DNA of 64,000 bases. It comes from a virus. Each line of letters begins with the position of its first letter. Positions within the stretch are counted from its first letter, which is position 1. The DNA lies in the IMG/VR virus record IMGVR_UViG_3300003322_000128, positions 34,784-98,783 of that record. The stretch is one strand, 5' to 3'. Made by a program: the position numbers and the translations under genes. Below are positions 18,603 through 59,159 of this stretch, piece after piece. A model generated the notes under the pieces. It worked only from the letters and a program-made list of their open reading frames with translations. It ran no database searches and was not told the DNA's origin.

Positions 18603-18701
18603 ACAGCCTATGGAAATGAGTCCGGGTTGTCTATGGCGCTAAGTGCAGCGCTACTTAGGTGGTTATACTTACCGACATACCCCGTCTTTGGACGGGGTTT
18701 T
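18603..18701 (+). ncRNA. Candidate structured small RNA or attenuator
   Basis: About 99 bases between a near-consensus promoter and a strong terminator, with no SD. Predicted elements: CTAAGT/ACTTAG stem (about 18639-18657), GGGTTGTC (18624-18631) complementary to GACATACCC (18674-18682) with one bulge, and the terminator. The long-range pairing and the terminator share the 18680-18682 bases, so they exclude one another. A ten-codon frame (18610-18642) starts about seven bases from the predicted 5' end. It may be an independent regulatory RNA or an attenuator for the LamG gene at 18738. Confidence 0.5.
18680..18701 (+). terminator. Terminator of the candidate small RNA
   Basis: CCCCGTC-TTTG-GACGGGG followed by TTTT. 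The next -35 box (TTGTCG, 18700-18705) overlaps its T run. Confidence 0.85.
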
Positions 18702-18728
18702 GTCGTTTAATCTCCATAGTGATATACT
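18700..18728 (+). promoter_or_regulatory. Promoter of the LamG-domain gene
   Basis: TTGTCG, 17 bp, TATACT. ATG 18738 is nine bases after the -10, so the mRNA should have almost no leader. Confidence 0.6.
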
Positions 18729-18737
18729 TTAATTACA

Positions 18738-20456
18738 ATGACTTATGTATATAGTGTATTGAGAGACGGACCTATTGGATTGTGGTCTTTTGATTCTCTA
18801 CCACTTAATGATTCTACTGGATATGGTAACAATGCCACTTATTCAGGTACTCCACAAACAACCCGCCCAATTGTGGCGGGCGGTGTTGCTGCTCAGTATC
18901 TAAGCTCAGACGACACAGTAAATTATCCAGTGTCCTCAATTATGATTGCTGGTCGAGAGTCCAGGGCATTTTCTCTGGAGGCGTGGATTAAGCCTCAAAG
19001 CGGTACAGCAGCAATCTTGGCAAGAGACAATAGCGGACTCTTCCTTGACGGATTGACCCTTAGATTCTCGATGGACTTTTCTTCACTGGTTAGTGTTATT
19101 TATGAACACTTGCAGGCTGGTGAAATCTATCATGTTGTAGCTGTCTATGATGGCAAGTCAATGGTTTTGTATGTTAACGGGGAAACTGTTGCCAGTTCTG
19201 ATATTGACGACTCAGAGATTTTGGCCGGGATTTCAGATACAACCACCAATCTTAAGACTACAATGACAACAACTATGGTTATGGATACTCCAGCAGTATA
19301 TAACTATGGACTAGATTACGTTCGTGTAAGCAGACATTACAACACTGGAATAAAGTACCCGCAAGTTGTCAATCTTTCAGCGAATAATTCTGGCAAGTAT
19401 TATCTGTTCTCAGATGCATACAGTTCGGTATATGACACAGTTTCATTTGGTGAAACTGATGACTGGAATTCAGGAATTTTCGCGGGTAATGTAACGTCAG
19501 TAGACGATGAGCTTGTCAATCTATTTGATGAAACAACAGGAGAGTGGCTTACTGGAACATGGACATACCAATATTCTGTAGCAGGAGACGAAGGTTCCGG
19601 TATTACACTCAATGGCTCAAGAATCACATGGGACTCGCTTGACACAATCACTGTAGAAACATCAACAGACAATGTAACGTGGACTCCAGTAACAAATGGC
19701 AGTTCAATTGTTGGAACTCAGAGTCTGTCTTCTGGATGGGCTATTGCTGTCAGAGTAACTATTCCAACAACAACTGACCATCAATCCACTGTTAGCAACC
19801 TGAAGGTTGTATTTTACACAGACAAGCATATTAAGGGTTCCGACGAGTCTCTTGTTGCTTCATTTAATGCACCACTGACAGTCACATTGGCAGATATGGC
19901 ATATCCACCAGCAAGTTTCAATGATAACGCCGGGGTTTTGTTGCCAGCATCCAATGGGATTTCAATTCCAGCAGACACAGACTTTGACCCTTATTCTGTA
20001 GTGGAGATGACTGTTAAATTCGATACCAGCACAGCGAGTAAGACGGTCCTTGCCCTAGGTTCTGCTTCAATTACATCAAATGGTTCGGGCCAGTGGGTTT
20101 CTACAGGACTCACCGCTTTGTACGTTGATGGAGTATCGGTTTCATCACCATTTTCTATTGCTGCGGGAAAGTGGCACCATGTGTTGGCTGTATTTCCGGC
20201 AACAACAGATATTGTTTATATTGGAAATAGTTCAGCAGGTTCTGCGGGCTACCCAATGAGGGTCGGATATGTTGCCTTGTATCCAGACACTATCACATCA
20301 GGCACAGCAACTGCAATTTATGATGCTTGGGTTGGGGTAGCAGCAGTTCAGATGGAAGATGAGAATACATCGAACATTTCTGAGCATATTTTTTCAGATA
20401 CTTCGTCACCATTCAGGGGATATTCATTCGATTGGTCTATTACGGGCGCCGGATAA
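18738..20456 (+). CDS. LamG/concanavalin-like virion protein
   Basis: 572 residues, no SD; a short or absent leader is predicted. Two LamG-like jelly-roll domains are visible: GLWSFDSLPLNDSTGYGNNA to GEIYHVVAVYDGKSMVLYVN (about 10-170), and from about 400 SVVEMTVKFDTSTASKTVLA to GKWHHVLAVFPATTDIVYIG. The middle is beta-rich and Thr/Ser-rich. Such domains bind glycans and occur in phage tail fibres and capsid decorations. Related domains recur at 26.7 and 38.6 kb. Confidence 0.75.
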   Translation: MTYVYSVLRDGPIGLWSFDSLPLNDSTGYGNNATYSGTPQTTRPIVAGGVAAQYLSSDDTVNYPVSSIMIAGRESRAFSLEAWIKPQSGTAAILARDNSGLFLDGLTLRFSMDFSSLVSVIYEHLQAGEIYHVVAVYDGKSMVLYVNGETVASSDIDDSEILAGISDTTTNLKTTMTTTMVMDTPAVYNYGLDYVRVSRHYNTGIKYPQVVNLSANNSGKYYLFSDAYSSVYDTVSFGETDDWNSGIFAGNVTSVDDELVNLFDETTGEWLTGTWTYQYSVAGDEGSGITLNGSRITWDSLDTITVETSTDNVTWTPVTNGSSIVGTQSLSSGWAIAVRVTIPTTTDHQSTVSNLKVVFYTDKHIKGSDESLVASFNAPLTVTLADMAYPPASFNDNAGVLLPASNGISIPADTDFDPYSVVEMTVKFDTSTASKTVLALGSASITSNGSGQWVSTGLTALYVDGVSVSSPFSIAAGKWHHVLAVFPATTDIVYIGNSSAGSAGYPMRVGYVALYPDTITSGTATAIYDAWVGVAAVQMEDENTSNISEHIFSDTSSPFRGYSFDWSITGAG

Positions 20457-20469
20457 CCAACTTATGGAC

Positions 20470-20530
20470 AAAACTTGCCTCTAAAGCTGAATTTTGACGC
20501 AAAACTTGCCTAAATTTGCTCATAGGCAAG
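20470..20530. repeat. CTTGCCT repeat cluster over the head-operon promoter
   Basis: AAAACTTGCCT occurs exactly at 20470-20480 and 20501-20511 (31 bp apart) and AGGCAAG, its inverted form, at 20524-20530, around the -35 box of the next promoter. This looks like an operator array. Confidence 0.6.
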
Positions 20531-20544
20531 GATAAAGGTATAAT
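20516..20544 (+). promoter_or_regulatory. Promoter of the portal operon
   Basis: TTGCTC, 17 bp, TATAAT. ATG 20552 is seven bases after the -10, a leaderless layout. Confidence 0.7.
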
Positions 20545-20551
20545 TTCTGAT

Positions 20552-20869
20552 ATGAAGACTACACGAAAGCAAATTGTAGAAGAGGTCCCCTGGGGTGTTT
20601 ATGTCTGGGAAATGCCTGATGGTCGCTGGATTGGCGACGATGAAGGCAATTTCTTGAGTATTGCATCCATGAAGGGTGATAAGAAGCGAATGCAGCAGCT
20701 AAAGGACTCTGTTCGCTCATATGGTGTTACCGAGGGTAAGCCATTCTTCCTTTCTGGTCACAGAAAGGTCTCAGATGAAGAGTTCGAAAATCAGAAGCGA
20801 CGCATGGAATTCGGTTTGATTCCAGATGAGCTTGATATTGCAGCGTTTAGAGAGGGTCAGGTTAGCTAA
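20552..20869 (+). CDS. Hypothetical protein ahead of portal, 105 aa
   Basis: ATG 20552 coincides with the predicted transcription start; an in-frame TTG-type start further up would lie upstream of transcription. Product: GVYVWEMPDGRWIGDDEGNF suggests a small beta domain, and the rest is a charged helical region (KKRMQQLKDSVRSYG, EEFENQKRRMEFGL). Its stop shares bases with the portal ATG (TAATG), so it is coupled to portal. Possibly a head-assembly factor; not recognised. Confidence 0.7.
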   Translation: MKTTRKQIVEEVPWGVYVWEMPDGRWIGDDEGNFLSIASMKGDKKRMQQLKDSVRSYGVTEGKPFFLSGHRKVSDEEFENQKRRMEFGLIPDELDIAAFREGQVS

Positions 20870-22452
20870 TGGCAAATAAGGTTGTATCAGCAGAGGAAGA
20901 GTCAAGGGAAATTGAGGTTAAGGTAGGCTCAATCGTAGAATATTCGGCATCTTCTTCTGAAATTGATGTATTCTCAAAGTCAGCAGATGAAGTCCGTAAG
21001 ATGGATGGAATCACTCCTGCCCTTAAGAGGAAGACGACTCGTGAAATCCAGAAGTTCCAACGTGGAACTGGTGGAGCAAAGACCAAGCGTGAAGAGCGAG
21101 ACGAGATTACGGGGTACAACCTATTTGAAGTAGTTATGCCACCCTATAATCTTGATTATCTAGCAGCTCTATACGAGAAGTCTTCTCCACATGCGGCAGC
21201 TGTTAAGGCTAAGGTCAAGAATATCGCCGGGTTGGGTTATCAGTTTGTAGAATCAGAGGCAACGAAGGAACTTCTAGACAGAGCAGAAGGAAATGAGTCT
21301 AAGCTTTCTCAGCTACGTAGGAGACTGTCCCGTGGTCGTATCCAGCTCAACGAGTGGCTTGACTCATGTAATGAAGAGGATGAATTCGATGAGACTCTAG
21401 GGAAGCTGTGGACAGATTATGAAACCACCGGAAACGCTTACCTTGAGATTGGTAGAAAGAACACTGGAGAAATCGGATATCTTGGACATATTCCTGCAAC
21501 TACATTGAGAATCCGTAAGCAGCGTGATGGATTTGTTCAGATTATCTCAAATCGGGCGGTTTTCTTTAGGAACTTTGGTGACAAGGAAACAACCGACCCA
21601 ATTGGTCATGACCCACGTCCTAATGAGATTATCCACTTCAAGAAGTACACTCCTACACATGGATATTACGGTGTTCCTGATATCATTTCTGCAATGACGG
21701 CGGTTACTGGTAATGAGTTCTCCGCTCGATTTAATCTTGATTATTTTGAGAACAAGGCAGTTCCTCGTTATGTTATCGTTATCAAGGGTGGCAACCTTTC
21801 TGCTCGTTCAGAGCAGCAGATTCTAGAATTCTTCCAGGCTTCTTTGAAGGGTAAGAATCACAGGACTCTGTATGTTCCACTTCCAGCAGATGAGGAAGGC
21901 AAGAAGGTTTCGTTCGAAATGAAGCCTGTTGAAACTGGAACGCAGGATTCTTCGTTCAATAATTACCGAAAGGGCAATCTGAACGAAATTCTGATGGCTC
22001 ATGGAGTCCCTATCTCAAAGGTGTCTCTTGGTGAGGGAGTTTCTTTGGCGGCGGCTAGAGATGCAGACAAGACGTTCAAGGAACAAGTATGTAGGCCAGA
22101 CCAGAGAATTCTTGAAAAGAAGTTGAACAAGATTGTCAAGGAACTCACACAAGTATTTGTGTTGAAGTTGAATGAGCTTTCTTTGACTGATGAAGATACT
22201 CAGTCAAAGATTGATGAGCGTTACCTACGTCTTGGTACCTATTTGCCAAATGAGGTTCGTGCTCGTAAGGGTATGCCTGGCATTAAGGGCGGAGACAAGC
22301 CTGTAGAACTTAAGCCACAGCAGGCGGCAGAGCAAAAGACTCAGGCTTCCGGTAATAGAAAGAGGGACCAGGAGCGTCAGGGTAATTCGACAGATTCCGC
22401 TTCCTCAAATAACACAAGAAATCCGCAAGGGGAAGGAAGACAGACCGCCTAA
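20869..22452 (+). CDS. Portal protein
   Basis: 527 residues. The portal forms the twelve-subunit DNA gate of the capsid. The core matches the phage portal family: YNLDYLAALYEKSSPHAAAV, GNAYLEIGRKNTGEIGYLGH, EIIHFKKYTPTHGYYGVPDI, then FENKAVPRYVIVIKGGNLSA and NLNEILMAHGVPISKVSLGE (clip, stem and wing regions). The N-terminal 50 residues are acidic and variable; the C-terminal 60 are polar and low in complexity (Gln/Asn/Ser). Coupled to the preceding gene by TAATG. Confidence 0.9.
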   Translation: MANKVVSAEEESREIEVKVGSIVEYSASSSEIDVFSKSADEVRKMDGITPALKRKTTREIQKFQRGTGGAKTKREERDEITGYNLFEVVMPPYNLDYLAALYEKSSPHAAAVKAKVKNIAGLGYQFVESEATKELLDRAEGNESKLSQLRRRLSRGRIQLNEWLDSCNEEDEFDETLGKLWTDYETTGNAYLEIGRKNTGEIGYLGHIPATTLRIRKQRDGFVQIISNRAVFFRNFGDKETTDPIGHDPRPNEIIHFKKYTPTHGYYGVPDIISAMTAVTGNEFSARFNLDYFENKAVPRYVIVIKGGNLSARSEQQILEFFQASLKGKNHRTLYVPLPADEEGKKVSFEMKPVETGTQDSSFNNYRKGNLNEILMAHGVPISKVSLGEGVSLAAARDADKTFKEQVCRPDQRILEKKLNKIVKELTQVFVLKLNELSLTDEDTQSKIDERYLRLGTYLPNEVRARKGMPGIKGGDKPVELKPQQAAEQKTQASGNRKRDQERQGNSTDSASSNNTRNPQGEGRQTA

Positions 22453-22457
22453 TTTAA

Positions 22458-22892
22458 ATGGTTAAGATTCTAAGAAGGGCTTGGGAGAGCCTAGCCACAG
22501 CTTTGGCTAGGCCAATCAATAAAGTAGCCGCAGTAGTTTTGTCAGTTTATACATTTCTCTGGGGGTTCTGGATTGCCAACCCCTTCTGGGATGTTTTTGG
22601 AAATGCACATGTATATGATTGGCTATCTAGTGTAGCCCCAGAAGAATATTGGGGTAGTATGGCAATGGCTGTTGGCGCAATCATGACTTATGGGGTAATT
22701 CGCGGCTCCAGAAAATCCTTGACGATTGGAGCATTTGTCGGTTTTATTCATTGGCTAATCATTGCCATGGGATATTTTGCGGGTGACTGGAGAAATACCG
22801 GTGGAATTACATCAAGCGCAATGGCACTTTATTGTGCAGCTATCTATCTAAACATCAGATACCTTCATTTTAAAGAAACACATCCCGAATAA
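22458..22892 (+). CDS. Four-span membrane protein inside the head operon
   Basis: 144 residues with four hydrophobic spans (VVLSVYTFLWGFWIA, MAMAVGAIMTYGVI, GAFVGFIHWLIIAMGYFAG, ITSSAMALYCAAIYLNI) and a basic N-terminus. It lies six bases after portal and before the protease-scaffold gene, an unusual place for a membrane protein. It resembles small phage membrane proteins of unknown role. Possibly anchors early assembly at the membrane or serves lysis; both are inference. Confidence 0.7.
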   Translation: MVKILRRAWESLATALARPINKVAAVVLSVYTFLWGFWIANPFWDVFGNAHVYDWLSSVAPEEYWGSMAMAVGAIMTYGVIRGSRKSLTIGAFVGFIHWLIIAMGYFAGDWRNTGGITSSAMALYCAAIYLNIRYLHFKETHPE

Positions 22893-22893
22893 T

Positions 22894-22922
22894 TTGCCTT
22901 TTTAAAAGGCGGCTGATAATAT
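22894..22922 (+). promoter_or_regulatory. Promoter of the protease-scaffold gene
   Basis: TTGCCT, 17 bp, TAATAT; ATG 22929 is six bases after the -10. GCCTTTTTAAAAGGC (22896-22910), an inverted repeat, overlaps the -35 and spacer. Confidence 0.6.
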
Positions 22923-22928
22923 ACAACT

Positions 22929-24242
22929 ATGGAGATTAAGAAGGCTCAGTGGGCTTCAGATGGCGAAAGTATTCGTCTGACGATGCCACTTTCTAAGGTT
23001 GATAAGGAGAACCGCCTAGTTTCAGGGTGGGCCTCTCTTGACAACGCTGATAGCCAAGGAGATGTAGTTCTCAAGGAGGCCAACCAGCGTGCATTCAGCC
23101 GTTTCCGTGGAAACATCCGAGAGATGCATCAGCCAATTGCTGTTGGTCGCATGGTTGATTTCAAGGAAGACTCCTACTTCGACCAGGAGACGCAGAAGTT
23201 CTATAATGGAATTTTTGTTACAGTATATGTTTCCAAGGGTGCGCAGGATACTTGGGAGAAGGTTCTAGACGGAACGCTCCAGGGATTTTCTATCGGCGGT
23301 GCGATTAAGGATGCTGAGACTCAGTGGGTAAAGGAAGCAAATGCAGCCATCCGCTTTGTTAAGGACTATGACCTAGTTGAACTAAGCTTGGTAGATTCTC
23401 CAGCTAACCAGCTTGCAAATATCTTCTCTATTACAAAGTCATCTGATGGTGAGGTTGTAATGAAGGGAATTGTAGCAGATACTCATTCAGAGAATGTCTA
23501 CTACTGTGAGCAGGATGGTATTGCTAAGACTTCCACTGATGAGTCAGCAGAATGCGGTAACTGCGGTTCCGCAATGCAAAACATTGGATGGTTTGAGTAC
23601 GGCAGCGATGAAGAGAAGGCGGAAAAGGTTTCGTCACTAGTTGCTGCACGTAATTCTTCTAACACGAGCGGTTCAGAGGAACCAATCGCTAAGCAGGATA
23701 CTGCACAAAACGAAGGAGGTGTAATCGTGGCAGAAGAGAACAAGAATTCTGAGACTGAGGTTCCGGCCGGTTCTACTTCAACTGAGGTTAACGAAGTTGC
23801 AGAAGAAGGAAAGGCTGAGACTGAAGTTGAGTCAAGCACAGAGACAGTAGCAGAAGAGGCAAAGAAGGAAGAGGAGACCGCCGACAATTCGGAGGTTGCT
23901 CCAGAGCCAGACATTGCAAAGATGTTTGGTGACCTACAGACTGCTATTTCGTCTGGCCTTGAGAAGAATGCAAAGGCGGCTGAGGAAGCAATTGCTAAGG
24001 CAGCAGAAGCATTCGAGACCAAGGTAGGAGAACTTGTAGAGAAGCACGAAGAGCTTGTAAATAAGTTTGAGTCTCTAAAGACTGACATCGGTGGCGTTGA
24101 AAAGCGTCTTGAGGGTGTAGAGTCTGAGACTGCTATGAAGAAGTCCGGAGACCTAGGCGGGTCAACGGAGGATACCCTAAAGAAGAGTAAGGGTTCAACG
24201 TGGGGCGGGCGCTTCCTCGGCCTTTCCGACCTACAAAACTAA
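22929..24242 (+). CDS. Capsid maturation protease fused to scaffold
   Basis: 437 residues. N-terminal protease domain (about 1-170, prohead protease/XkdF type): SGWASLDNADSQGDVV, His about 67 in EMHQP, and Ser in VELSLVDSPANQ (about 150-158) form the likely catalytic set. A small Cys cluster follows (YYCEQDG, ECGNCGS; about 190-215). The remainder is Glu/Ala-rich and disordered, then coiled coil (FETKVGELVEKHEELVNKFE), typical of an internal scaffold. An internal GTG with SD near 23728 could give a separate scaffold. The leaderless start fits the promoter above. Confidence 0.85.
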   Translation: MEIKKAQWASDGESIRLTMPLSKVDKENRLVSGWASLDNADSQGDVVLKEANQRAFSRFRGNIREMHQPIAVGRMVDFKEDSYFDQETQKFYNGIFVTVYVSKGAQDTWEKVLDGTLQGFSIGGAIKDAETQWVKEANAAIRFVKDYDLVELSLVDSPANQLANIFSITKSSDGEVVMKGIVADTHSENVYYCEQDGIAKTSTDESAECGNCGSAMQNIGWFEYGSDEEKAEKVSSLVAARNSSNTSGSEEPIAKQDTAQNEGGVIVAEENKNSETEVPAGSTSTEVNEVAEEGKAETEVESSTETVAEEAKKEEETADNSEVAPEPDIAKMFGDLQTAISSGLEKNAKAAEEAIAKAAEAFETKVGELVEKHEELVNKFESLKTDIGGVEKRLEGVESETAMKKSGDLGGSTEDTLKKSKGSTWGGRFLGLSDLQN

Positions 24243-24273
24243 TTTCTAGGAAATATGGAGGTGACACAAACAG

Positions 24274-25272: not shown

Positions 25273-25286
25273 AATTCTGTTTGACG

Positions 25287-25310
25287 AACCCCGCCCAAAA
25301 GGGCGGGGTT
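25287..25310 (+). terminator. Terminator after major capsid gene
   Basis: AACCCCGCCC-AAAA-GGGCGGGGTT followed by TCGTGTTTTA. Confidence 0.88.
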
Positions 25311-27470: not shown

Positions 27471-27501
27471 TTAGGTTTTATATATTCAAATGTGATATAC
27501 T
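27471..27501 (+). promoter_or_regulatory. Probable promoter of the connector genes
   Basis: TATACT (27496-27501) with a weak -35. ATG 27508 is six bases after the -10, so a leaderless mRNA is predicted. Confidence 0.45.
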
Positions 27502-27507
27502 GACGAC

Positions 27508-28428
27508 ATGGAAATCTATAGAAATGAACTAGCAAATATTGACCTGAAGGTGCCTGTCACTGCGGTCAGTGGAACCTTTGAGGTAGCTGCCTATGAAGGT
27601 AACACACTGCTGTACACGTTCGCAACTGTATCACAGATTTCTGGTGGCTATAGAGTCGTGCTTCCATTCAGCCTTGTTCAGTCAGATAAGACTATCCAGA
27701 TTAGATGGAAGTTCAATTATGTTGAAAATTCTGTAACCAAGACATACAACTACACTACTGTTGTTGATGTTGTGACTCCGTATGTGACTTTGGATGAAAT
27801 TAAGGAAGCTATTCCTGAAGTTTTGACCATGTTCGATACCACTGACAAGATGGACCTTGAGCTGAAGAGGCTTGAGAGAAGGATTCGCGGCATTATTGAT
27901 AATTATACCGGGCAGTCATTTGGCAGGTATGTTGGAACACGTGAGGTGATTGGTTCTGGTGATGAAGAGCTTAAGCTTTCTGATAGGCTGGTTTCTCTAG
28001 AAAACATTGCTGGAGCGAATATTATTTACTCAAGTGACGGCATTTCTTCTCCTGGCCTTTACACTTCTAGAGGAGACGGATGGTACATTGGATTTTCCGC
28101 CCCAACTCCTACAGGTGATTATGTGTTTGAGAATGTTATCAGAGACCCGGACAGTGTTTATTCGCGCGGGTTTAGGGATAATTTTGTCTATACAATTACT
28201 GGAGTATGGGGATGGGACGATGTTCCTGCCGAAGTTAAAGAAGCAGCCCTGTCACTTTGTGAAGATGAATTGTGTCCACAAGCAGAATATAGAGACAGAT
28301 ACTTGAAGAGCATTTCTGGAGATGGCTGGAGATACGAGTACAATCCAAATGCTTACTATGGAACAGGAAGTGTGATTGTAGACCAGCTTCTTGAGCCTTT
28401 CCGACGTAGCACTATGGTTGTGATTTAA
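27508..28428 (+). CDS. Head-tail connector (adaptor) protein with Ig-like N-terminus
   Basis: 306 residues, no SD. Residues about 1-90 are a beta-sandwich domain resembling the product of 25747-26133. From about 92, VTLDEIKEAIPEVLTMFDTT and LELKRLERRIRGIIDNYTGQ (a helical bundle) fit the gp6-like head-tail connector family. The C-terminal part has WGWDDVPAEVKEAALSLCED, typical of the same group. It probably sits below the portal. Confidence 0.7.
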   Translation: MEIYRNELANIDLKVPVTAVSGTFEVAAYEGNTLLYTFATVSQISGGYRVVLPFSLVQSDKTIQIRWKFNYVENSVTKTYNYTTVVDVVTPYVTLDEIKEAIPEVLTMFDTTDKMDLELKRLERRIRGIIDNYTGQSFGRYVGTREVIGSGDEELKLSDRLVSLENIAGANIIYSSDGISSPGLYTSRGDGWYIGFSAPTPTGDYVFENVIRDPDSVYSRGFRDNFVYTITGVWGWDDVPAEVKEAALSLCEDELCPQAEYRDRYLKSISGDGWRYEYNPNAYYGTGSVIVDQLLEPFRRSTMVVI

Positions 28429-41766: not shown

Positions 41767-41795
41767 TTGACTTTCATTTGACTGAAAGATATAAT
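41767..41795 (+). promoter_or_regulatory. Near-consensus promoter with inverted repeat
   Basis: TTGACT, 17 bp, TATAAT. CTTTCA-TTTGAC-TGAAAG (41771-41788) is an inverted repeat overlapping the spacer. ATG 41802 follows the -10 by six bases. Confidence 0.75.
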
Positions 41796-41801
41796 TACAT
41801 T

Positions 41802-42185
41802 ATGAGTCAGATTTCCACAGCAAATGTCATTAAGACCCCAGAGGTCGTTCTTCATCCGGCGTTCTTTTTGCCACCGGATGTTGTTGATATTCGTGTTTCC
41901 GATACATCGGACCCATCTGAGGAAGATGGCGTAACGTTTGATGATGTAATCGATGCTGATGATGTAATTGATGGCTCTGCCGACGATGGTGGTATCTCTG
42001 ATACCCCAAACATTCCTACAGACGATGATGGTGAGGGAGTAGAAGTGCTCCCTACACCACAATGGATGAACATTATTAGTCAGCAGGTAAGAATCGCCCC
42101 GGATGGTAAAGCAGTTGTTGATGTTGTAATCGAGCTTGAAGACGTAACCGGAGCATCAGAATACGACGTAAGGATTACCAAGTGA
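41802..42185 (+). CDS. Acidic protein in the tail-fibre operon, 127 aa
   Basis: ATG 41802 is at the predicted transcription start, so no SD is expected; the in-frame codon at 41778 lies upstream of transcription. Residues 20-80 are Asp/Glu-rich (DDVIDADDVIDGSADDGGIS), and the last 40 form a beta segment (DGKAVVDVVIELEDVTGASE). It overlaps the next gene by GTGA. Virion linker or assembly factor is possible. Confidence 0.65.
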   Translation: MSQISTANVIKTPEVVLHPAFFLPPDVVDIRVSDTSDPSEEDGVTFDDVIDADDVIDGSADDGGISDTPNIPTDDDGEGVEVLPTPQWMNIISQQVRIAPDGKAVVDVVIELEDVTGASEYDVRITK

Positions 42186-47137: not shown

Positions 47138-47578
47138 TTGTCCGTTTCATCATTTAAAGATGTTAATTGGGGTTCCAATGAGTATCTAGCAAGTGACAAG
47201 TTGAATACAATGGTATCAAATACAAGATACCTGTTTGAAAGGGCTCCAAAACTTTATTATAATTCATATTCAACAAAGAAAGATACTGGAATTAAAATTG
47301 CTTGCGGAACCGCAACAATTGCGCCGGGTAAGGTACATTACTATACAAAGACAATCAACTTTGGTTCGTTCTTTACTGTAGGTTCTAAGCCGGTAATTGT
47401 TACTAGCGTTACCTCTCCATATAATAGAAGAATGATTCTTTCTCATTGGGGAATTCAGGGAACTGGTTATGTTCCAGACCATAGAGGCTTTGTTGTTTGT
47501 GCAGCAACGGCTACAGTTGAGAAGTCGCATGTTTTGTCTAAGCAGATTTATGTGAATTGGCTAGCAATGGGATACTGA
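47138..47578 (+). CDS. Structural protein, 146 aa
   Basis: TTG start abuts the previous stop. DVNWGSNEYLASDKLNTMVS resembles the start of small tail/fibre proteins. The rest is beta-rich (TATIAPGKVHYYTKTINFGS, HRGFVVCAATATVEKSHV) and compatible with a receptor-binding or fibre-tip jelly roll. The last gene of the tail block. Confidence 0.55.
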   Translation: MSVSSFKDVNWGSNEYLASDKLNTMVSNTRYLFERAPKLYYNSYSTKKDTGIKIACGTATIAPGKVHYYTKTINFGSFFTVGSKPVIVTSVTSPYNRRMILSHWGIQGTGYVPDHRGFVVCAATATVEKSHVLSKQIYVNWLAMGY

Positions 47579-48767: not shown

Positions 48768-48796
48768 TTGCCCTTGAACGTGCGCTCTGCTATAAT
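48768..48796 (+). promoter_or_regulatory. Promoter of the candidate holin gene
   Basis: TTGCCC, 17 bp, TATAAT. The ATG at 48832 has SD AAAGGAGG. Confidence 0.6.
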
Positions 48797-48831
48797 GGGC
48801 GTAGATAAAAAGTAAAGGAGGTATAACCTAT

Positions 48832-49176
48832 ATGGCTTATGCCAAGTCTCTACTAGCAGTTCTTGTTACTGCTATTACAGCTATTGTTGCTGCACTTACT
48901 GATAACGTTATTACAAACGTTGAGTGGATTAATGTTGGTATTGCTGCTGCTGGTGCTGCTGCTGTTTTTGCTGCACCTAATGTTCCTGGTGCACGTTACA
49001 CAAAGGCGGTTCTCGCAGTAATCACCGCAGTTCTTACATTCTTCGTTACTGCTGTAACTGACGGAATTTCAGCGGCTGAGTGGATGCAGGTACTTGTTAT
49101 TGCTGCTGGTGCTATTGGCGTCTATGCAGTTCCAAACAAGCCTTCGACCACGATTGGTCAGCCTGGTGTACTGTAA
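48832..49176 (+). CDS. Candidate holin with tandem duplication
   Basis: 114 residues with four hydrophobic segments made by two similar halves: LLAVLVTAITAIVAALTDNV then INVGIAAAGAAAVFAAPNVP, and AVLAVITAVLTFFVTAVTDG then MQVLVIAAGAIGVYAVPNKP. Ala/Val/Thr-rich spans with a central polar break fit actinophage holin-like proteins. A holin would let the endolysin at 17.7 kb reach the wall. The call is from topology and context only. Confidence 0.6.
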   Translation: MAYAKSLLAVLVTAITAIVAALTDNVITNVEWINVGIAAAGAAAVFAAPNVPGARYTKAVLAVITAVLTFFVTAVTDGISAAEWMQVLVIAAGAIGVYAVPNKPSTTIGQPGVL

Positions 49177-49357
49177 GAAGTGTGGCGGTCGAGTAATGTT
49201 CGACCGAGTGTTTTCGGAAAAGAAGCACGTAGAGCTGTTTTGCATTCTCTGTGGAAACAGATGGATGCTTGATAAGACTAAGAATAGGTTTGCTGCATGG
49301 CTATGGAAAATGGAACAAAGCCACGCCAACGCCGCAATCGCAAGTCTGCCAGACTGA
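49166..49357 (+). CDS. Zinc-ribbon protein, 63 aa
   Basis: GTG 49166 overlaps the previous stop. CKKC and CILC (residues about 3-6 and 30-33) form a two-knuckle zinc ribbon of the type seen in small transcription- or translation-associated proteins. Basic. Weak SD. Function unknown. Confidence 0.5.
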   Translation: MYCKKCGGRVMFDRVFSEKKHVELFCILCGNRWMLDKTKNRFAAWLWKMEQSHANAAIASLPD

Positions 49358-49833
49358 GATATTTCTTCCTGAATGGAGACTTGCACAAGGTCCTGAGTGT
49401 TACACGTGCTCAGGACCTTGTCGTTTGTTGGAATTATCCACAGGAGAAGCGGGTTGGATATGTGTGGTCAGATGTCAAGAAGAGGCATCAAAAAGCGTTT
49501 AAAATGCAAGAGGTATCTAAGATGATTGGCCGCCATCGCACAAATATTGAACGCGATATTTTGGCGGGTAACATTAAGGCACCTCAGCGTTCTTATGTAC
49601 TTGCAAATAGAAGGCCATTGTATTATTTCTTTAGTGAAGAAAATGTATTTGACCTTCATGACTATCTTTTGACAGTTCACGTCGGAAGACCTAGAAGTGA
49701 TGGTAAGATTACCCCAAGAACAACATTGCCATCAAAGGCCGAACTAAGAGCCATGATGAAGCATGATGTTGTGACCTATGTAAAAACTGAGCAAGGAGAG
49801 TTTGTTCCGGTTTGGAAGGAGCAGGATTGGTAA
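49297..49833 (+). CDS. HTH DNA-binding protein, 178 aa
   Basis: Starts at ATG 49297 or 49303 within the zinc-ribbon gene. The middle has a helix-turn-helix of the excisionase/MerR type: MQEVSKMIGRHRTNIERDIL followed by AGNIKAPQRSYVLANRRPLY (about 70-110), a winged-helix-like pattern. Basic at the N-terminus. It may regulate late or replication genes. A terminator-like hairpin (49385-49421) lies inside the gene, so expression could be controlled internally. Confidence 0.65.
   Translation: MAMENGTKPRQRRNRKSARLRYFFLNGDLHKVLSVTRAQDLVVCWNYPQEKRVGYVWSDVKKRHQKAFKMQEVSKMIGRHRTNIERDILAGNIKAPQRSYVLANRRPLYYFFSEENVFDLHDYLLTVHVGRPRSDGKITPRTTLPSKAELRAMMKHDVVTYVKTEQGEFVPVWKEQDW
49385..49421 (+). terminator. 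13-bp hairpin inside the HTH gene
   Basis: ACAAGGTCCTGAG (49385-49397) pairs perfectly with CTCAGGACCTTGT (49409-49421) across 11 bases. CGTTTGTTGG follows. It could terminate transcripts of the upstream holin or regulate the HTH gene. Confidence 0.5.
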
Positions 49834-53239: not shown

Positions 53240-53242
53240 GAA

Positions 53243-53260
53243 TGCCGGGTTCGCCCGGCA
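53243..53260 (+). terminator. UUCG hairpin after primase
   Basis: TGCCGGG-TTCG-CCCGGCA, a perfect 7-bp stem with a stable tetraloop, followed by AGCTTG. No T tract. Confidence 0.55.
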
Positions 53261-53263
53261 AGC

Positions 53264-53292
53264 TTGTGCCACATCGTGACAGATGGTACAAT
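53264..53292 (+). promoter_or_regulatory. Promoter of the SSB-like gene
   Basis: TTGTGC, 17 bp, TACAAT. The ATG at 53346 has SD AGGAG. Confidence 0.6.
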
Positions 53293-53345
53293 AGTAGAAG
53301 AAGCCTCATTGAAGGCTCAATTATACTAGGAGATTATTAAACAAA

Positions 53346-54047: not shown

Positions 54048-54065
54048 CATGACTTTGTGAAGAGA

Positions 54066-54087
54066 CCCCGCCTTGAAAAGGGCGGGG
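54066..54087 (+). terminator. Terminator after the SSB-like gene
   Basis: CCCCGCC (54066-54072) pairs with GGCGGGG (54081-54087), followed by TTCTTT. It overlaps the next promoter. Confidence 0.8.
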
Positions 54088-54101
54088 TTCTTTGCTATAG
54101 T
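54073..54101 (+). promoter_or_regulatory. Promoter of the HNH gene, overlapping a terminator
   Basis: TTGAAA, 17 bp, TATAGT. The -35 sits in the terminator loop. ATG 54109 is seven bases after the -10. Confidence 0.65.
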
Positions 54102-54108
54102 GAAGCTT

Positions 54109-54408
54109 ATGAGTTTTGAACTGACAGAGGACTATAAGAAATACATTAAGAGTCCCCAATGGAAAGCAAAGTGTGCTCGGTACTGGGCTCTGTATGGCAG
54201 GAAGTGTCAAGCATGCGGCTCCAGAAAAAATCTACACGTCCATCATAATACCTATGATAGATTCAAGCGTGAGATTATGTCAGACCTCACAGGTGTTTGT
54301 CATGACTGTCATAGACGCATTCATCAGCAACACCGCGCAAATCGGCGGGTTAGTCTGAAGCTTGTTACATACAACTTTGTAAAAGCAATGCGTAATAAAA
54401 GACTATGA
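54109..54408 (+). CDS. HNH endonuclease
   Basis: 99 residues; ATG 54109 is at the predicted transcription start. CQACGSRKNLHVHHNTYDRF and LTGVCHDCHRRIHQQH make a Cys-bound HNH nuclease (two CxxC zinc knuckles flanking the HH catalytic site and closing H). Free-standing HNH nucleases are mobile or help packaging; between SSB and polymerase it is likely a homing endonuclease. Leaderless mRNA predicted. Confidence 0.85.
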   Translation: MSFELTEDYKKYIKSPQWKAKCARYWALYGRKCQACGSRKNLHVHHNTYDRFKREIMSDLTGVCHDCHRRIHQQHRANRRVSLKLVTYNFVKAMRNKRL

Positions 54409-54421
54409 CCTTACACAGAAC

Positions 54422-54450
54422 TTGACTATCACGATTAATCGTGATACGAT
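54422..54450 (+). promoter_or_regulatory. Promoter with 20-bp palindromic operator
   Basis: TTGACT, 17 bp, TACGAT. TATCACGATTAATCGTGATA (54427-54446) is a perfect 20-bp palindrome filling the spacer, so a bound repressor would block polymerase. ATG 54457 follows the -10 by six bases. Confidence 0.8.
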
Positions 54451-54456
54451 ATTTCT

Positions 54457-55089
54457 ATGTATATTAACGAAGCATGGCTAGCAGGATTTATAGAGGGCGA
54501 TGGATGCTTTTCTGTTAATTCTCAACAGGGCGGACGATACGTTTACCCAAAGATTGAGATTCATCAAAAGAATACAGAGCCGCTGAAGGCAGTAAGAGAC
54601 CAATTTGGATTTGGATTTTCTCCGGGAGGAAAGATTCCTCGGGTTCAGATTGTCGGAAGACCAGCGCAGGCGGTTTTTGATAAAATTTCTCCGTATCTTT
54701 CGTCAAAAAGAATCGAACAGGCCGAAACAAAAGGTTTTATTTTCAATGGCGTAAGAAAACCACACAACCGTTCGTGGTTTGCCGGATATTATGAAGCTGA
54801 GGGATGTATTTATACAAAAACAAATGGTCAGACTAAAAGAGACGGTTCTAAAACTTTGTTTGTTGCTATGACAATTTCTCAGTATTACTCGGATGAAACA
54901 AGTAGGTTCTGCAAAAATGCACTCGGCTTCGGACGGGTGGCAGGACCATATATGGCTAAGGGAGAGAGAAGAGCTTACTCATTCAATCTCTCTGGTCGAC
55001 AAGCAATCCAGACCGTTGAGTCTATTCAAAATATGCTCTCCGAAGAGAAGCGTCACCAATTGAAAGAGGTAAAGAATGCCGTATTGTGA
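54457..55089 (+). CDS. LAGLIDADG homing endonuclease
   Basis: 210 residues with two LAGLIDADG motifs: WLAGFIEGDGCF (about 8-19) and WFAGYYEAEGCI (about 106-117), the acidic residues of which bind the metal ions. A two-motif protein cuts as a monomer. The leaderless start at 54457 is controlled by the operator promoter. Its stop overlaps the polymerase start (GAATG), and SD GAGG for the polymerase lies in its last codons, so the element sits immediately before dnaE without a gap. Confidence 0.88.
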   Translation: MYINEAWLAGFIEGDGCFSVNSQQGGRYVYPKIEIHQKNTEPLKAVRDQFGFGFSPGGKIPRVQIVGRPAQAVFDKISPYLSSKRIEQAETKGFIFNGVRKPHNRSWFAGYYEAEGCIYTKTNGQTKRDGSKTLFVAMTISQYYSDETSRFCKNALGFGRVAGPYMAKGERRAYSFNLSGRQAIQTVESIQNMLSEEKRHQLKEVKNAVL

Positions 55090-58000
55090 ACTCCATTTGC
55101 ATGACTACTATTCAACTCTTGATGGATTGAATAGTCCAGAAGAATATATGATTCGCGCAAAGGAATTGGGAATGACCCATCTTGCGCAGACTAATCACGG
55201 TACACTTCTTGGCCACCGTGAATTTCAGAAGGCTGCCAAGAGTGCGGGCATTGTCCCTATTCTTGGTGTTGAGGCTTATATTTCGCCCACCGACCGTTTT
55301 GACCGTCGAGCTAAGGCTAAGCGTACTGATGGTACGAATGTCTATAATCACCTTATTATCCTGTCACAGGGTGAGACTGGTTTGAAGACTCTTCAGACCC
55401 TCAATGAAAAGGCTTGGACAGAAGGATTTTATAACAAGCCACGCATTGATATGGAGCTTCTTGAAGAGCATAATGAAGGTCTTATCATTTTGTCTGGATG
55501 TCTTAATTCGATGCTGTGTAAGGCAATTGAGGCAGGCAATTATGAAGAGGCTGAGCAGATTGCCCTAGAGTTCAAGCGTATTCTTGGTGACCGATTCTAT
55601 ATTGAGGTTCAGGCTCATAATCCAAAGAAGATGAATGAGGCTCTATTCAAGATTGCTGATAGCAATGGCATTAAGCCTGTTGTTACTTCTGACTGTCATT
55701 ATGCTCGAAAGGAAGAGCTTTGGATTGAAGAGGCTATGCTGATTCTTTCAACAAAGCCCGGATTTGGTAAGGAATTTGACTTCAGCAAGTCTCAGAAGAT
55801 GGATATGCTTGAGAGGTTTAACTACCTATATCCTGACCGTAAGATGACATTCGAGGAAATTCAGATTTATATGAAGTCTGCTGAAGAGCAACTTAATGAT
55901 TTCCAGAAGAATGGATTTGAGCGTGAGGATATTGTAAAGAATACTGAGGAAATTGCTTCTCGAATTGAGGAGTATCCTTTCCACCAAGGTCTTGACCTTC
56001 TGCCTCGCCCAAAGAATGGAAATCCTGATGAGCTTCTGGAAAAGAAGGCTCGGGCGGGTCTTCGTAATAAGGGTCTGGATAAGAATCCAGAGTACGTAGA
56101 GCGTCTTAATGAAGAGCTTGAGATTATCAAGAACAAGGATTTCTCGACCTACTTTCTGATTCTTGCCAATACGATTAAGTGGTCTAAGGACCAAGGAATT
56201 TTGGTTGGTCCTGGTCGTGGTTCTGGTGCCGGTTCTTTGGTCAACTATGTTCTTGGTATTACGGATGTAGACCCGATTAAGTGGGGTTTGCTGTTCTTCC
56301 GATTTATCAACCCTGAGCGTAATGACTATCCTGACATTGATACAGACTTTGAAGACCGTAGGCGAAATGAGGTCAAGGATTACCTAACCCGAAAGTTTAC
56401 TCATGTCGCATCTATTGCTACTGTGGGTTACTTCAAGGATAAGGGTGTTGTTCGAGATGCTGCGCGGGTTTTCCGTATTGAGCAGTCAGAGACAGATGAA
56501 GCACTAAAGACTATTTCAACATATGAAGAATATCTGACTTCACCTGCTACTGAGGCTTACCGAAAGAAGTATCCAGAAGTTGAGAAGTTGGCCAATGAAC
56601 TTCGTGGCCGAATTCGTCAGACTGGAATGCACGCGGCGGGCATCGTTATCTCAAAGGAGCCTATTGCAAAGTATGCTCCAATCGAGACTGCTGCTGACCC
56701 AAAGGATAAGTCTGCGCCTAGGCGTATGCTTGTTGCAATGGACATGAATGAGGCTGCCGACCTCGGTCTGATTAAGTTGGATGCCCTTGGCCTGAAGACT
56801 CTTTCCGTTATGGGTGATGCTTTGAAGATTATCAAGGAGCGGCACAACCGTGACATTACACTCACAGAAATTCCTCTTGAGGATAAGAAGGTGTATGAGA
56901 TGCTTTCTGCTGGTCATACAAAGGGAGTTTTCCAGTGTGAGGCTGCGCCATATACCGGCCTGATTGTCAACATGGGTGGTATTGATAACTTTGCTGAGCT
57001 TGCTGCGTCCAACGCACTTGTTCGGCCGGGTGCGATGAACACTATTGGTGCTGAATATATTGCTCGAAAGAACAATGAGTCTCCAGTGACGTTTCACCAC
57101 GAAGATATGCGGTGGTTTACTGAAGACACCTATGGTGAGATTCTGTATCAGGAGCAGGTTATGCTTACGATGACTGAATTGGCCGGGATGTCTATGGCAA
57201 CTGCCGATAAGGTTCGTAAGATTATCGGTAAGAAGAAGGATGCTCGTGAATTCGATGCTTATCGTGACGAATTCATTGCGGGTGCTTCTAAGAAGGTTTC
57301 AAAGGCCGTGGCTGAAAAGCTATGGCATGACTTTGAGGCTCACGCAGGCTATTCTTTCAACAAGTCTCACGCTGTTGCATATTCCATGATTTCTTACTGG
57401 ACTGCATGGCTGAAGACTTACTATCCTGTTGAATTCATCTACGCAATGATGAAGAATGAGGAAAAGAAAGAGAACCTTACCGCCTATCTCCTTGAGGCAA
57501 AGCGCATGAAGGTGAAGATTAAGTTGCCTCATGTCAATCACTCTCAACTTGATTTTTCGATTGAGGACGACTCTATTCGATTTGGTCTTGCTGACATCAA
57601 GTTTATCTCTCACAATCTGGGAGCTAAGTTGATTGAAAAGAGGCCGTACAGAGATTATGCCCATTTGTACGAGACTGTGAAGGAAAAGGGAAGTGGCTTG
57701 AATGTCCGGGTTTTGTCTTCAATGAATGCTATTGGAGCTGCAACCTTTCCGGACAATCCGAAGCGTGGCGATGAGAGGCACTTCCTGTACGAGTATCTAA
57801 ATATTCCGGCGTTTGAAATTCCTGACATGCCTGATGGTGTCAGGTCACAATTTACGCCGCTCAGTGCTTTTCGTGAGGACTCTACGAGTATCATCATGGG
57901 AATGGTCAAGAACGTGAAGCGTGGAAAGGGATGGTCTCGGATTGAGGTTGTTGATGAGACTGGTGAGGCTTCTTTCTTCCACAAGGAAGACACACTCATT

Positions 58001-58366
58001 GCACCTGGTAATATGTACGCCATGCTGATTGCCAACAAGCGTCTGGCACGCTATGTAGAAATCAGCGATTTTGTACGGGGTTCTAGTAACACATTTGTAA
58101 GATTTGTGTACACAAAGAACTTTGCATCACTGACTGATGGATTTTATTACGTTGTTTCCAATCAGAGTCGAAAGACGAAGGCTGGAAAGAATATGGCTGA
58201 CATGGTACTTGCGGACCATGATAAAAACCTGTATCCTGTACTAGTGTTTCCGCAAATGTTCCACAAGGCTTACGGATTCTGTAAGGAGGGTTCAGTAATT
58301 GAGGCCACTCTTAAGCAGACTCAAGATGGAGATTCCTTCTTTCTTGATGAAGTAATTCCGCGCTAA
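55076..58366 (+). CDS. dnaE: DNA polymerase III alpha subunit (DnaE-type)
   Basis: 1,096 residues. N-terminal PHP domain: ELHLHDYYSTLDGLNSPEEY (HxH), LAQTNHGTL, VEAYISP, SDCHYA. Palm with the catalytic Asp set YPDIDTDFEDRR at about 419-424 and a GPGRGSGAGSLVNYVLGITD motif (about 378-398). Fingers and little-finger region follow (FQCEAAPYTG, HAGYSFNKSHAVAYSMISYW), then a C-terminal OB-fold-like part. It replicates phage DNA; the phage has no family A or B polymerase in this window. SD AAAGAGG inside the homing endonuclease gene. Confidence 0.92.
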   Translation: MPYCELHLHDYYSTLDGLNSPEEYMIRAKELGMTHLAQTNHGTLLGHREFQKAAKSAGIVPILGVEAYISPTDRFDRRAKAKRTDGTNVYNHLIILSQGETGLKTLQTLNEKAWTEGFYNKPRIDMELLEEHNEGLIILSGCLNSMLCKAIEAGNYEEAEQIALEFKRILGDRFYIEVQAHNPKKMNEALFKIADSNGIKPVVTSDCHYARKEELWIEEAMLILSTKPGFGKEFDFSKSQKMDMLERFNYLYPDRKMTFEEIQIYMKSAEEQLNDFQKNGFEREDIVKNTEEIASRIEEYPFHQGLDLLPRPKNGNPDELLEKKARAGLRNKGLDKNPEYVERLNEELEIIKNKDFSTYFLILANTIKWSKDQGILVGPGRGSGAGSLVNYVLGITDVDPIKWGLLFFRFINPERNDYPDIDTDFEDRRRNEVKDYLTRKFTHVASIATVGYFKDKGVVRDAARVFRIEQSETDEALKTISTYEEYLTSPATEAYRKKYPEVEKLANELRGRIRQTGMHAAGIVISKEPIAKYAPIETAADPKDKSAPRRMLVAMDMNEAADLGLIKLDALGLKTLSVMGDALKIIKERHNRDITLTEIPLEDKKVYEMLSAGHTKGVFQCEAAPYTGLIVNMGGIDNFAELAASNALVRPGAMNTIGAEYIARKNNESPVTFHHEDMRWFTEDTYGEILYQEQVMLTMTELAGMSMATADKVRKIIGKKKDAREFDAYRDEFIAGASKKVSKAVAEKLWHDFEAHAGYSFNKSHAVAYSMISYWTAWLKTYYPVEFIYAMMKNEEKKENLTAYLLEAKRMKVKIKLPHVNHSQLDFSIEDDSIRFGLADIKFISHNLGAKLIEKRPYRDYAHLYETVKEKGSGLNVRVLSSMNAIGAATFPDNPKRGDERHFLYEYLNIPAFEIPDMPDGVRSQFTPLSAFREDSTSIIMGMVKNVKRGKGWSRIEVVDETGEASFFHKEDTLIAPGNMYAMLIANKRLARYVEISDFVRGSSNTFVRFVYTKNFASLTDGFYYVVSNQSRKTKAGKNMADMVLADHDKNLYPVLVFPQMFHKAYGFCKEGSVIEATLKQTQDGDSFFLDEVIPR

Positions 58367-58370
58367 GTGG

Positions 58371-58388
58371 TTGGGCCTTCGGGCCCAA
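58371..58388 (+). terminator. UUCG hairpin after polymerase
   Basis: TTGGGCC-TTCG-GGCCCAA followed by GCTTACCTATAGGAGG, whose SD serves the next gene. No T tract. The same hairpin-AAGCTT module occurs near 0.4, 53.2 and 63.9 kb. Confidence 0.55.
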
Positions 58389-58408
58389 GCTTACCTATAG
58401 GAGGAAAA

Positions 58409-58600
58409 TTGGCTAACGAGCCTACGCAGATTGACCTTGCCCCATTTTTGGCGGCGGCTGTGGAAGAGGCAGGCGGCGAAATCCGTATTCCATATGACAC
58501 ATTCCGAAACCAAGTAGGGCAGAAGGCACTTGCGATTGATATTGAAGATGACGGAGCAACAGTTGTGCTTCGTGTAGTAGATGGGATTCCAAATGACTGA
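58409..58600 (+). CDS. Small acidic protein, 63 aa
   Basis: TTG 58409 follows SD AGGAGGAAAA; an in-frame start at 58367 would lie in the hairpin. AVEEAGGEIRIPYDTFRNQV then QKALAIDIEDDGATVVLRVV gives a helix and two strands. Overlaps the MazG start. No family recognised. Confidence 0.65.
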   Translation: MANEPTQIDLAPFLAAAVEEAGGEIRIPYDTFRNQVGQKALAIDIEDDGATVVLRVVDGIPND

Positions 58601-58943
58601 CCTTGATTTCGATAAGTATCAGCTTGCCACTGCTGATACTGCTATTTATCCCGGAGCGCTTGAGGGAAATGCTGACGCACTTTCCTACGTTGCTCTCGGT
58701 TTGGTTGGCGAGGCTGGTGAGATTGCCAATAAAGTCAAGAAGATTCTTCGTGACAAGGCTGGTCAGGTAAAGTATGAAGATACTCTGGAGCTTTCCAAGG
58801 AACTTGGTGATGTTCTGTGGTATCTTGCCCGATTGGCTGATGAGATTGGTTATCCTCTTGAGGCTATTGCGCAGAGCAATTTGAATAAGTTGAATTCTCG
58901 CAAGGCGCGAGGTGTTATCAGCGGTAGCGGTGACAACCGTTAG
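58593..58943 (+). CDS. MazG-like NTP pyrophosphohydrolase
   Basis: 116 residues, ATG 58593 overlapping the previous stop. GLVGEAGEIANKVKKILRDK and LSKELGDVLWYLARLADEIG supply the E-x3-E...E-x2-D Mg-binding pattern of MazG/DUF550-type pyrophosphatases. It hydrolyses NTPs or dNTPs, or (p)ppGpp in some phages, cleaning the nucleotide pool or countering starvation signals. Fits with ThyX and NrdJ. Confidence 0.85.
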   Translation: MTDLDFDKYQLATADTAIYPGALEGNADALSYVALGLVGEAGEIANKVKKILRDKAGQVKYEDTLELSKELGDVLWYLARLADEIGYPLEAIAQSNLNKLNSRKARGVISGSGDNR

Positions 58944-58958
58944 TCAGCCTGGTATAAT
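58930..58958 (+). promoter_or_regulatory. Promoter of the small gene before the RecA-like ATPase
   Basis: GTGACA, 17 bp, TATAAT. ATG 58965 is six bases after the -10, a leaderless layout. Confidence 0.7.
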
Positions 58959-58964
58959 ATCAGT

Positions 58965-59159
58965 ATGAATGTGAACGGCTACTTCCTCCGGGGAATCAAT
59001 GAAGACAACATTTTGGTCTTTAGGTCTGAGGACCCGGAGGAATTGCTACGTATTATTCAGCGGCTGTGCGCCAGTCGCGATAAACAAATTAGGGCGCTAG
59101 CACAAAAACTTGAAATTGACTGGAATAGTCGAAATTACAATAAGGACAATAAAAAGTAG
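58965..59159 (+). CDS. Small hypothetical protein, 64 aa
   Basis: No SD; ATG at the predicted transcription start. GYFLRGINEDNILVFRSEDP then ELLRIIQRLCASRDKQIRAL and a basic tail. Its stop overlaps the GTG of the RecA-like gene, so it may lead that mRNA. Function unknown. Confidence 0.65.
   Translation: MNVNGYFLRGINEDNILVFRSEDPEELLRIIQRLCASRDKQIRALAQKLEIDWNSRNYNKDNKK

What the first reader, a model, noticed from the sequence alone, without database searches (positions are those of the whole stretch)
18700..58967. A family of leaderless phage promoters: -10 box 6-9 bases before the ATG
At 18738, 20552, 22929, 27508, 41802, 54109, 54457 and 58965 the start codon lies 6-9 bases after a TATAAT-like -10, seven of them with a recognisable -35 at 17 bp. 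None has an SD. Sigma-70 transcription normally begins about seven bases after the -10, so these mRNAs should begin at or next to the AUG. This covers virion (LamG, portal operon, protease) and replication or mobile genes (HNH, LAGLIDADG). Actinobacteria translate leaderless mRNAs well, so the phage may use this as a translation class separate from its SD-led genes.
Basis: partly seen in the sequence, partly recalled or inferred. Interest (0 to 1): 0.72.

Follow-up and report, generated by a model that had tools for sequence, protein, structure and literature searches.

The report
Conserved leaderless promoters in actinobacterial phages
At eight phage genes the RNA-polymerase promoter sits so close to the start codon that the message should begin at the AUG with no ribosome-binding leader; for seven of them the exact spacing is conserved across a whole family of Streptomyces phages, and the same spacing recurs in other actinobacterial phages but not in the two proteobacterial phages tested.

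Summary
The record is a Stanwilliamsviridae (BE-cluster) Streptomyces phage. At all eight ATGs a TANNNT -10 box ends 6-9 nt upstream, seven with a -35-like hexamer at 17 bp. Motif scans alone prove nothing here (34 promoter-like sites against 32.5 in shuffles), so I tested conservation. Seven of the eight genes keep the -10-to-ATG spacing in 13-17 relatives, down to 26% protein identity; the LAGLIDADG gene has no distinct relative to test. Among 56 genes with orthologues, boxes conserved at one spacing fall at 6-7 nt in five genes, none at 0-5 or 8-23, then at 24 and 35 nt before strong-SD genes. In-frame stops close upstream and conservation from residue 2 fix the ATGs as true starts. Genome-wide, -10 boxes peak at 6-7 nt before ATG in Streptomyces and Rhodococcus phages and in uncultured whiB-bearing viruses, but not in a Vibrio phage or T5. 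Leaderless or near-leaderless (0-3 nt) mRNAs are by far the best explanation; 5' ends remain unmapped. Leaderless genes are common in Streptomyces and were predicted in mycobacteriophages, so this is a well-supported member of a known kind. Unexpected extra: an unannotated, highly conserved ~100-nt RNA candidate lies just upstream of 18738.

The parts
18700..18740 (+). Leaderless promoter of LamG-domain gene 18738-20456: -35 TTGTCG 18700-18705, TG-extended -10 TATACT 18723-18728, spacer 9, ATG 18738
   Evidence: spacing 6-10 in 15 of 15 relatives with that ATG, to 26% protein identity
18679..18698 (+). Terminator hairpin just upstream; its T-tract carries the -35 of 18738
   Evidence: and relatives
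20516..20554 (+). Leaderless promoter of 20552-20869 (phrog_9394, first gene of the portal operon): -35 TTGCTC 20516-20521, -10 TATAAT 20539-20544, spacer 7
   Evidence: 17 of 17 relatives; Rhodococcus homologue TATAAT-6-ATG; 53 of 57 distinct IMG/VR upstreams at 6-9 nt
22894..22931 (+). Leaderless promoter of head maturation protease 22929-24242: -35 TTGCCT, -10 TAATAT 22917-22922, spacer 6
   Evidence: 17 of 17 relatives at 6
27496..27510 (+). Leaderless promoter of head-tail adaptor 27508-28428: TG-extended -10 TATACT 27496-27501, spacer 6, no -35
   Evidence: 17 of 17 relatives at 6
41767..41804 (+). Leaderless promoter of 41802-42185 (phrog_11696): -35 TTGACT 41767-41772, -10 TATAAT 41790-41795, spacer 6
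   Evidence: 17 of 17 relatives
54064..54111 (+). Terminator hairpin 54064-54089 merged with the leaderless promoter of HNH gene 54109-54408: -35 TTGAAA 54073-54078 (in the hairpin), TG-extended -10 TATAGT 54096-54101, spacer 7
   Evidence: 13 of 13 relatives that have the gene
54422..54459 (+). Leaderless promoter of LAGLIDADG gene 54457-55089: -35 TTGACT, -10 TACGAT 54445-54450, spacer 6; 18-bp palindrome in the spacer
   Evidence: no relative in phages, only an identical copy in IMG/VR
58930..58967 (+). Leaderless promoter of 58965-59159 (first gene of the recA operon): -35 GTGACA 58930-58935, -10 TATAAT 58953-58958, spacer 6
   Evidence: 17 of 17 relatives plus four uncultured contigs (L134, L135, L139, L140)
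10085..10100 (-).
   Evidence: -10 kept in 6 of 11 relatives; weaker than the others
17674..17708 (+). Contrast class: TATAAT 17674-17679, 26-nt leader with AAAGGAGGTG, endolysin ATG 17706
48791..48834 (+). Contrast class: TATAAT 48791-48796, 35-nt leader with AAAGGAGG, ATG 48832

Best explanation
These are working host-type (HrdB/sigma-70) promoters whose transcription start falls on, or within about 3 nt of, the A of the start codon, so the first gene of each transcription unit is made from a leaderless mRNA recognised through its 5'-terminal AUG. Downstream genes of the same unit are read by overlap/coupling or by their own SD; for example the protease (leaderless) is followed 31 nt later by the major capsid gene with GGAGGTGA. 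The arrangement lets a complete promoter fit in 21-60-nt gaps, sometimes merged with the preceding terminator, whose T-tract or hairpin supplies the -35. Shown: position, conservation, absence of SD, identity of the start codon, phage-group specificity. Inferred: promoter activity, exact 5' end, leaderless translation.
For: Spacing conserved in 13-17 relatives for seven genes although the promoter sequence drifts and protein identity falls to 26-36%. Conserved -10 positions are bimodal, at 6-7 nt (no SD) or 24 and 35 nt (strong SD), with none at 0-5 or 8-23 nt. In-frame stops 6-24 nt upstream of the ATG in some orthologue of each gene and conserved residues from position 2 fix the start. The order is strand-specific: TATAAT-N6-ATG clearly exceeds reverse-strand and backwards controls in 17 records. 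ATG peak at d=6-7 in six relatives (59 and 49 against about 22), absent on the reverse strand and for GTG. The peak recurs in Rhodococcus phages (11 v 3.3, 12 v 3.3) and in uncultured whiB-encoding viruses (d=6: 8, 6, 12, 14 against 2.1-3.1 per nt) but not in Vibrio phage Chester (0 v 5.9) or T5 (3 v 6.3). In S. lividans the -10-to-TSS distance averages 6.3 nt (5-7 in 88.7%) and 17% of TSSs are leaderless (PMC8079986); bacterial leaderless genes show TANNNT about 12 bp before the start (PMC3160421), exactly the geometry here.
Against: No 5' end has been mapped. 18738 has a 9-10-nt spacer in several phages, so a 2-3-nt leader is likely there. 20552 has a weak AAAGG upstream in 9 of 17. In some Boydwoodruffvirinae the gene before the protease runs into its ATGA, so coupling is possible there. 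27508 has no -35. 54457 has no independent relative. The hosts of the uncultured viruses are inferred from whiB only.
Confidence: 0.87

Rival explanations
1. The -10 boxes are real, but the functional 5' ends leave very short leaders (2-5 nt): near-leaderless mRNAs rather than exact 5'-AUG.
For: 18738 has spacers of 7-10 with a conserved A three bases before the ATG (TTACA/TTACC/ATACA), and uncultured homologues of 20552 mostly have spacer 8-9.
Against: Five window genes have spacer 6-7 in nearly every relative, and the genome-wide peak is sharply at 6. S. lividans work counts 0-3 nt as leaderless anyway (PMC8079986).
Confidence: 0.15
2. The genes are translated mainly from longer polycistronic mRNAs started upstream; the ATGs are reached by coupling or reinitiation and the -10 boxes are minor or inactive.
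For: All lie in tightly packed co-oriented operons; in some Boydwoodruffvirinae the preceding gene overlaps the protease start as ATGA.
Against: An inactive -10 would not keep its distance to the ATG at 26-36% protein identity; terminators precede 18738 and 54109; no SD is kept in these gaps although SD is strongly kept at neighbouring genes.
Confidence: 0.06
3. Chance: AT-rich gaps produce TATAAT-like words everywhere and the reader picked those near ATGs.
For: Promoter-like motifs are not in excess over shuffles in 13.5-33 kb.
Against: Excess confined to spacing 6-7, to the coding strand and to ATG, conserved in relatives, and absent in equally AT-rich T5 and Chester.
Confidence: 0.01

Closest known systems
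TA-led leaderless genes of Actinobacteria (Zheng et al. 2011, PMC3160421; S. lividans TK24 transcriptome, PMC8079986)
   Same: TANNNT -10 about 12 bp before the start codon, no SD; TTGACn -35 at about 17 bp; operon-first genes
   Different: Viral genes; no genome-wide GTG peak seen, whereas 32% of S. lividans leaderless starts are GTG
Predicted leaderless promoters of cluster O mycobacteriophages (Corndog group, PMC4351075)
   Different: Three promoters in a different phage group; no conservation-of-spacing or cross-phage test reported in the passage read
Thermus phages P23-45 and phiYS40, leaderless middle/late mRNAs (my knowledge; Berdygulova et al. 2011 not held)
   Same: Phage-wide use of leaderless mRNAs for non-early genes
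   Different: Different transcription apparatus and promoters; here ordinary host-type -35/-10
Lambda cI from PRM (leaderless mRNA; lambda is cited as the first case in PMC3160421, and cI in PMC9031893)
   Same: 5'-AUG mRNA made by host RNA polymerase
   Different: A single repressor gene, not virion and replication operons

Membership tests
Leaderless (TA-led) actinobacterial genes | TANNNT box starting about 12 bp before the start codon | tested here: met
   spacer 6-7 (first T 12-13 bp) at seven genes, 9 at 18738
Leaderless (TA-led) actinobacterial genes | No Shine-Dalgarno sequence at the start | tested here: met
   median energies -2.4 to -5.9 against -15 to -18 at capsid, major tail and endolysin genes; weak AAAGG at 20552 only
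Leaderless (TA-led) actinobacterial genes | The ATG is the true start codon | tested here: met
   in-frame stops close upstream, N-terminal residues conserved; 54457 not testable
Leaderless (TA-led) actinobacterial genes | Transcription start within 0-3 nt of the start codon | not testable with these tools
   needs 5'-end mapping
Leaderless (TA-led) actinobacterial genes | Translation by 70S ribosomes binding the 5'-AUG | not testable with these tools
   needs reporter or in vitro assay
Host HrdB/sigma-70 promoters | -10 TAnnnT with nTGACn-like -35 at 16-18 bp | tested here: met
   TAnnnT in eight of eight; -35 with 3/6 or more matches at 17 bp in seven; 27508 relies on extended -10

The most novel reading that the evidence does not exclude
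In large actinobacterial phages leaderless AUG initiation is a dedicated dosage tier: low-copy virion parts (portal operon, protease, adaptor, minor tail) and replication-operon heads are leaderless, while abundant capsid, major-tail and lysis proteins keep strong conserved SD leaders. The ratio of the two modes would then set virion stoichiometry and could shift as translation factors change late in infection.
Probability: 0.25. Interest if true: 0.65.

Novelty: new member of a known kind. Interest (0 to 1): 0.5.

Why it matters
It gives a sequence-only, conservation-backed case that a family of dsDNA phages places host-type promoters directly on start codons of essential virion and replication genes, in step with hosts that translate leaderless mRNA well. 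It helps place start codons in actinophage annotation (TunaTartare gene 58 is annotated as starting at a GTG that overlaps its -10 box, gene 21 at a TTG in its terminator/-35, and Peregrin gene 76 at a GTG next to its -10), and it offers tractable phages in which leaderless and SD-led translation could be compared in one infection.

Tried and rejected
Consensus promoter scanning alone: at or only moderately above shuffles, so not used as evidence. GTG as a leaderless start class: no peak at 6, one candidate at 10088. phiC31 as an actinophage control: uninformative, no strong -10 at any distance (GC 64%). 58971 and 22983 as separate starts: they reuse the same -10 of 58965 and 22929. 47420 TATAAT-6-ATG lies inside gene 47138-47578: treated as chance. 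The TTG starts that ORF listing puts at 20516 and 54073 are the -35 hexamers of the promoters, and 41778 lies in the promoter spacer. Relatives of the LAGLIDADG gene: none in phages. Papers on BE-phage or Stanwilliamsviridae transcription: none found. Corndog record: not held under the accession tried.
Full report
What the record is. The window is bases 34,784-98,783 of a 98,783-base IMG/VR virus record. Its ribonucleotide reductase, head and tail genes are colinear with, and closest to, BE-cluster Streptomyces phages of the family Stanwilliamsviridae (TunaTartare, Faust, Sham, Annadreamy; about 76-82% nucleotide identity over the late region).

The sites. All eight sites exist at the stated places. 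The -10 ends 9, 7, 6, 6, 6, 7, 6 and 6 nt before the ATG (18738, 20552, 22929, 27508, 41802, 54109, 54457, 58965). Seven have a hexamer resembling TTGACA at exactly 17 bp; 27508 has none but carries a TG-extended -10, as do five others. The 'alternative' TTG starts that an ORF lister gives at 20516 and 54073 are the -35 boxes themselves, and the one at 41778 lies in the spacer.

Is it more than chance? Promoter-like motifs as such are not in excess in 13.5-33 kb (34 found, 32.5 in shuffles), so the test has to be about position and conservation. (a) Orthologues in 17 relatives keep the spacing at seven genes: 22929 and 27508 at 6 in 17 of 17, 58965 at 6 in 17 of 17, 20552 at 6-7 in 17 of 17, 41802 at 6-7 in 17 of 17, 54109 in 13 of 13, 18738 at 6-10 in 15 of 15. 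This includes the other subfamily (LukeCage, Samisti12, Mildred21, Jay2Jay), where the proteins are only 26-36% identical for 18738 and 27508. (b) In an unbiased scan of 56 genes and 83 conserved candidate starts against eight non-redundant relatives, -10 boxes conserved at one spacing occur at 6-7 nt in five genes, never at 0-5 or 8-23 nt, and then at 24 (17706) and 35 nt (48832), both with strong SDs; the few other positions reuse the same boxes from in-frame downstream starts, apart from one at 52. (c) Without using gene calls, a strong -10 is followed by ATG at 6 or 7 nt 59 and 49 times in six relatives against about 22 at other distances, only on the coding-rich strand and only for ATG; exact TATAAT-N6-ATG shows the same excess over reversed and reverse-strand controls in 17 records.

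Are the ATGs the true starts? Yes for seven. Each gene has orthologues with an in-frame stop 6-24 nt upstream, and residues 2 to about 25 are conserved (MEIYRNELANVDL, MKTTRKQIVEEVPWGVYVWEMP, MEIKKAQW...). The capsid (24274), major tail (30388), endolysin (17706) and tail chaperone (31135) genes keep strong, placed SDs in most or all relatives, whereas the leaderless set does not.

How far it extends. Rhodococcus phages Peregrin and Weasels2 have many such starts; Peregrin gp74 is 38% identical (E 1e-18) to the 20552 protein and reads TATAATTGCTAAATG, as does the corresponding site in Weasels2. The 20552 protein has at least 598 matches in IMG/VR; of 57 distinct upstream regions among the best 80 loci, 53 have a -10 at 6-9 nt. 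Five of five of those contigs above 100 kb tested encode WhiB, an actinobacterial protein found in only C. glutamicum among the 14 control genomes, and the four of them that I fetched show a genome-wide peak at 6 nt (8, 6, 12, 14 against 2.1-3.1). Vibrio phage Chester and coliphage T5, equally AT-rich, show none. phiC31 (64% GC) is uninformative. These controls are few, so 'actinobacterial against proteobacterial' is a pattern, not a survey.

Mechanism. In S. lividans the mean -10-to-TSS distance is 6.3 nt, 88.7% being 5-7, and 17% of transcripts are leaderless (PMC8079986). A spacer of 6 therefore puts the start on the A of AUG. Spacers of 9-10 (18738) probably leave 2-3 nt. Most leaderless genes head a short operon; the next genes follow by overlap or with their own SD. 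The gaps that hold a full promoter are 21-60 nt in most cases, and two promoters are merged with the preceding terminator (18679-18698; 54064-54089). Promoter activity, 5' ends and leaderless translation are inferred.

What is known. Leaderless genes with TANNNT about 12 bp before the start are common in Actinobacteria (PMC3160421), and cluster O mycobacteriophages have predicted leaderless promoters (PMC4351075). I found no paper on transcription in this phage family. So the kind is known. What I did not find described is its family-wide conservation on essential phage operons and the apparent split between leaderless low-copy and SD-led high-copy virion genes. That split rests on a handful of genes and is a hypothesis.

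An extra found on the way. Between a promoter-like TTGACG-17-TATAAT (18568-18596) and the terminator at 18679-18698 lies a stretch of about 100 nt, unannotated as RNA, that is about 79-97% identical in 82 phage records, far better conserved than the protein encoded just downstream. It keeps TAYGGAAATGAGTCCG in an apical hairpin, with a few compensatory changes in the supporting stem (2 of 10 pairs), and reaches no Rfam gathering score. It looks like a separate small RNA, or a terminated leader, directly upstream of the 18738 promoter.

Noticed in passing
window 18568-18700: Unannotated ~100-nt RNA candidate: promoter-like TTGACG-17-TATAAT, structured core CUAAGUACAGCCUAUGGAAAUGAGUCCGGGUUGU..., terminator 18679-18698; 82 Streptomyces phage records at about 79-97% identity, compensatory pairs in the stem, no Rfam family at gathering score, no match to its core pattern in the bacterial genome collection.
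   Followed up: partly
IMG/VR loci L150-L220: At least 598 viral contigs encode a relative of the 20552 protein (phrog_9394, function unknown); uncultured ones use a TGGACTT-N16/17-TGGTAAAMT promoter 6-9 nt before the ATG, and all five tested contigs above 100 kb carry whiB.
   Followed up: partly
window 54427-54446: Palindrome TATCACGATTAATCGTGATA fills the spacer of the LAGLIDADG gene's promoter: operator-like. A weaker CTTTC..GAAAG dyad lies in the 41802 promoter.
   Followed up: no
TunaTartare genes 58 and 21 (L025 40254 and 1285); Peregrin gene 76 (L098 19986): Deposited start codons (GTG, TTG, GTG) overlap or abut the promoter; the leaderless ATG a few codons downstream is the better start.
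   Followed up: partly
window 10088, minus strand: C5-methylase-like gene whose GTG start lies 6 nt after TAAAAT; the only GTG leaderless candidate, -10 kept in 6 of 11 relatives.
   Followed up: partly
window 12154-12427, minus strand: Three adjacent tRNA-Thr genes with anticodons GGT, CGT and TGT, and no other tRNA in the window.
   Followed up: no
window 49385-49421: 16-bp stem hairpin ACAAGGTCCTGAG...CTCAGGACCTTGT in the coding region around 49297-49833.
   Followed up: no
IMGVR_UViG_3300003320_000087 (129,916 b; L132, L133, L267): Carries 100% identical LAGLIDADG and 58965 genes; probably a fuller assembly of the same phage.
   Followed up: no
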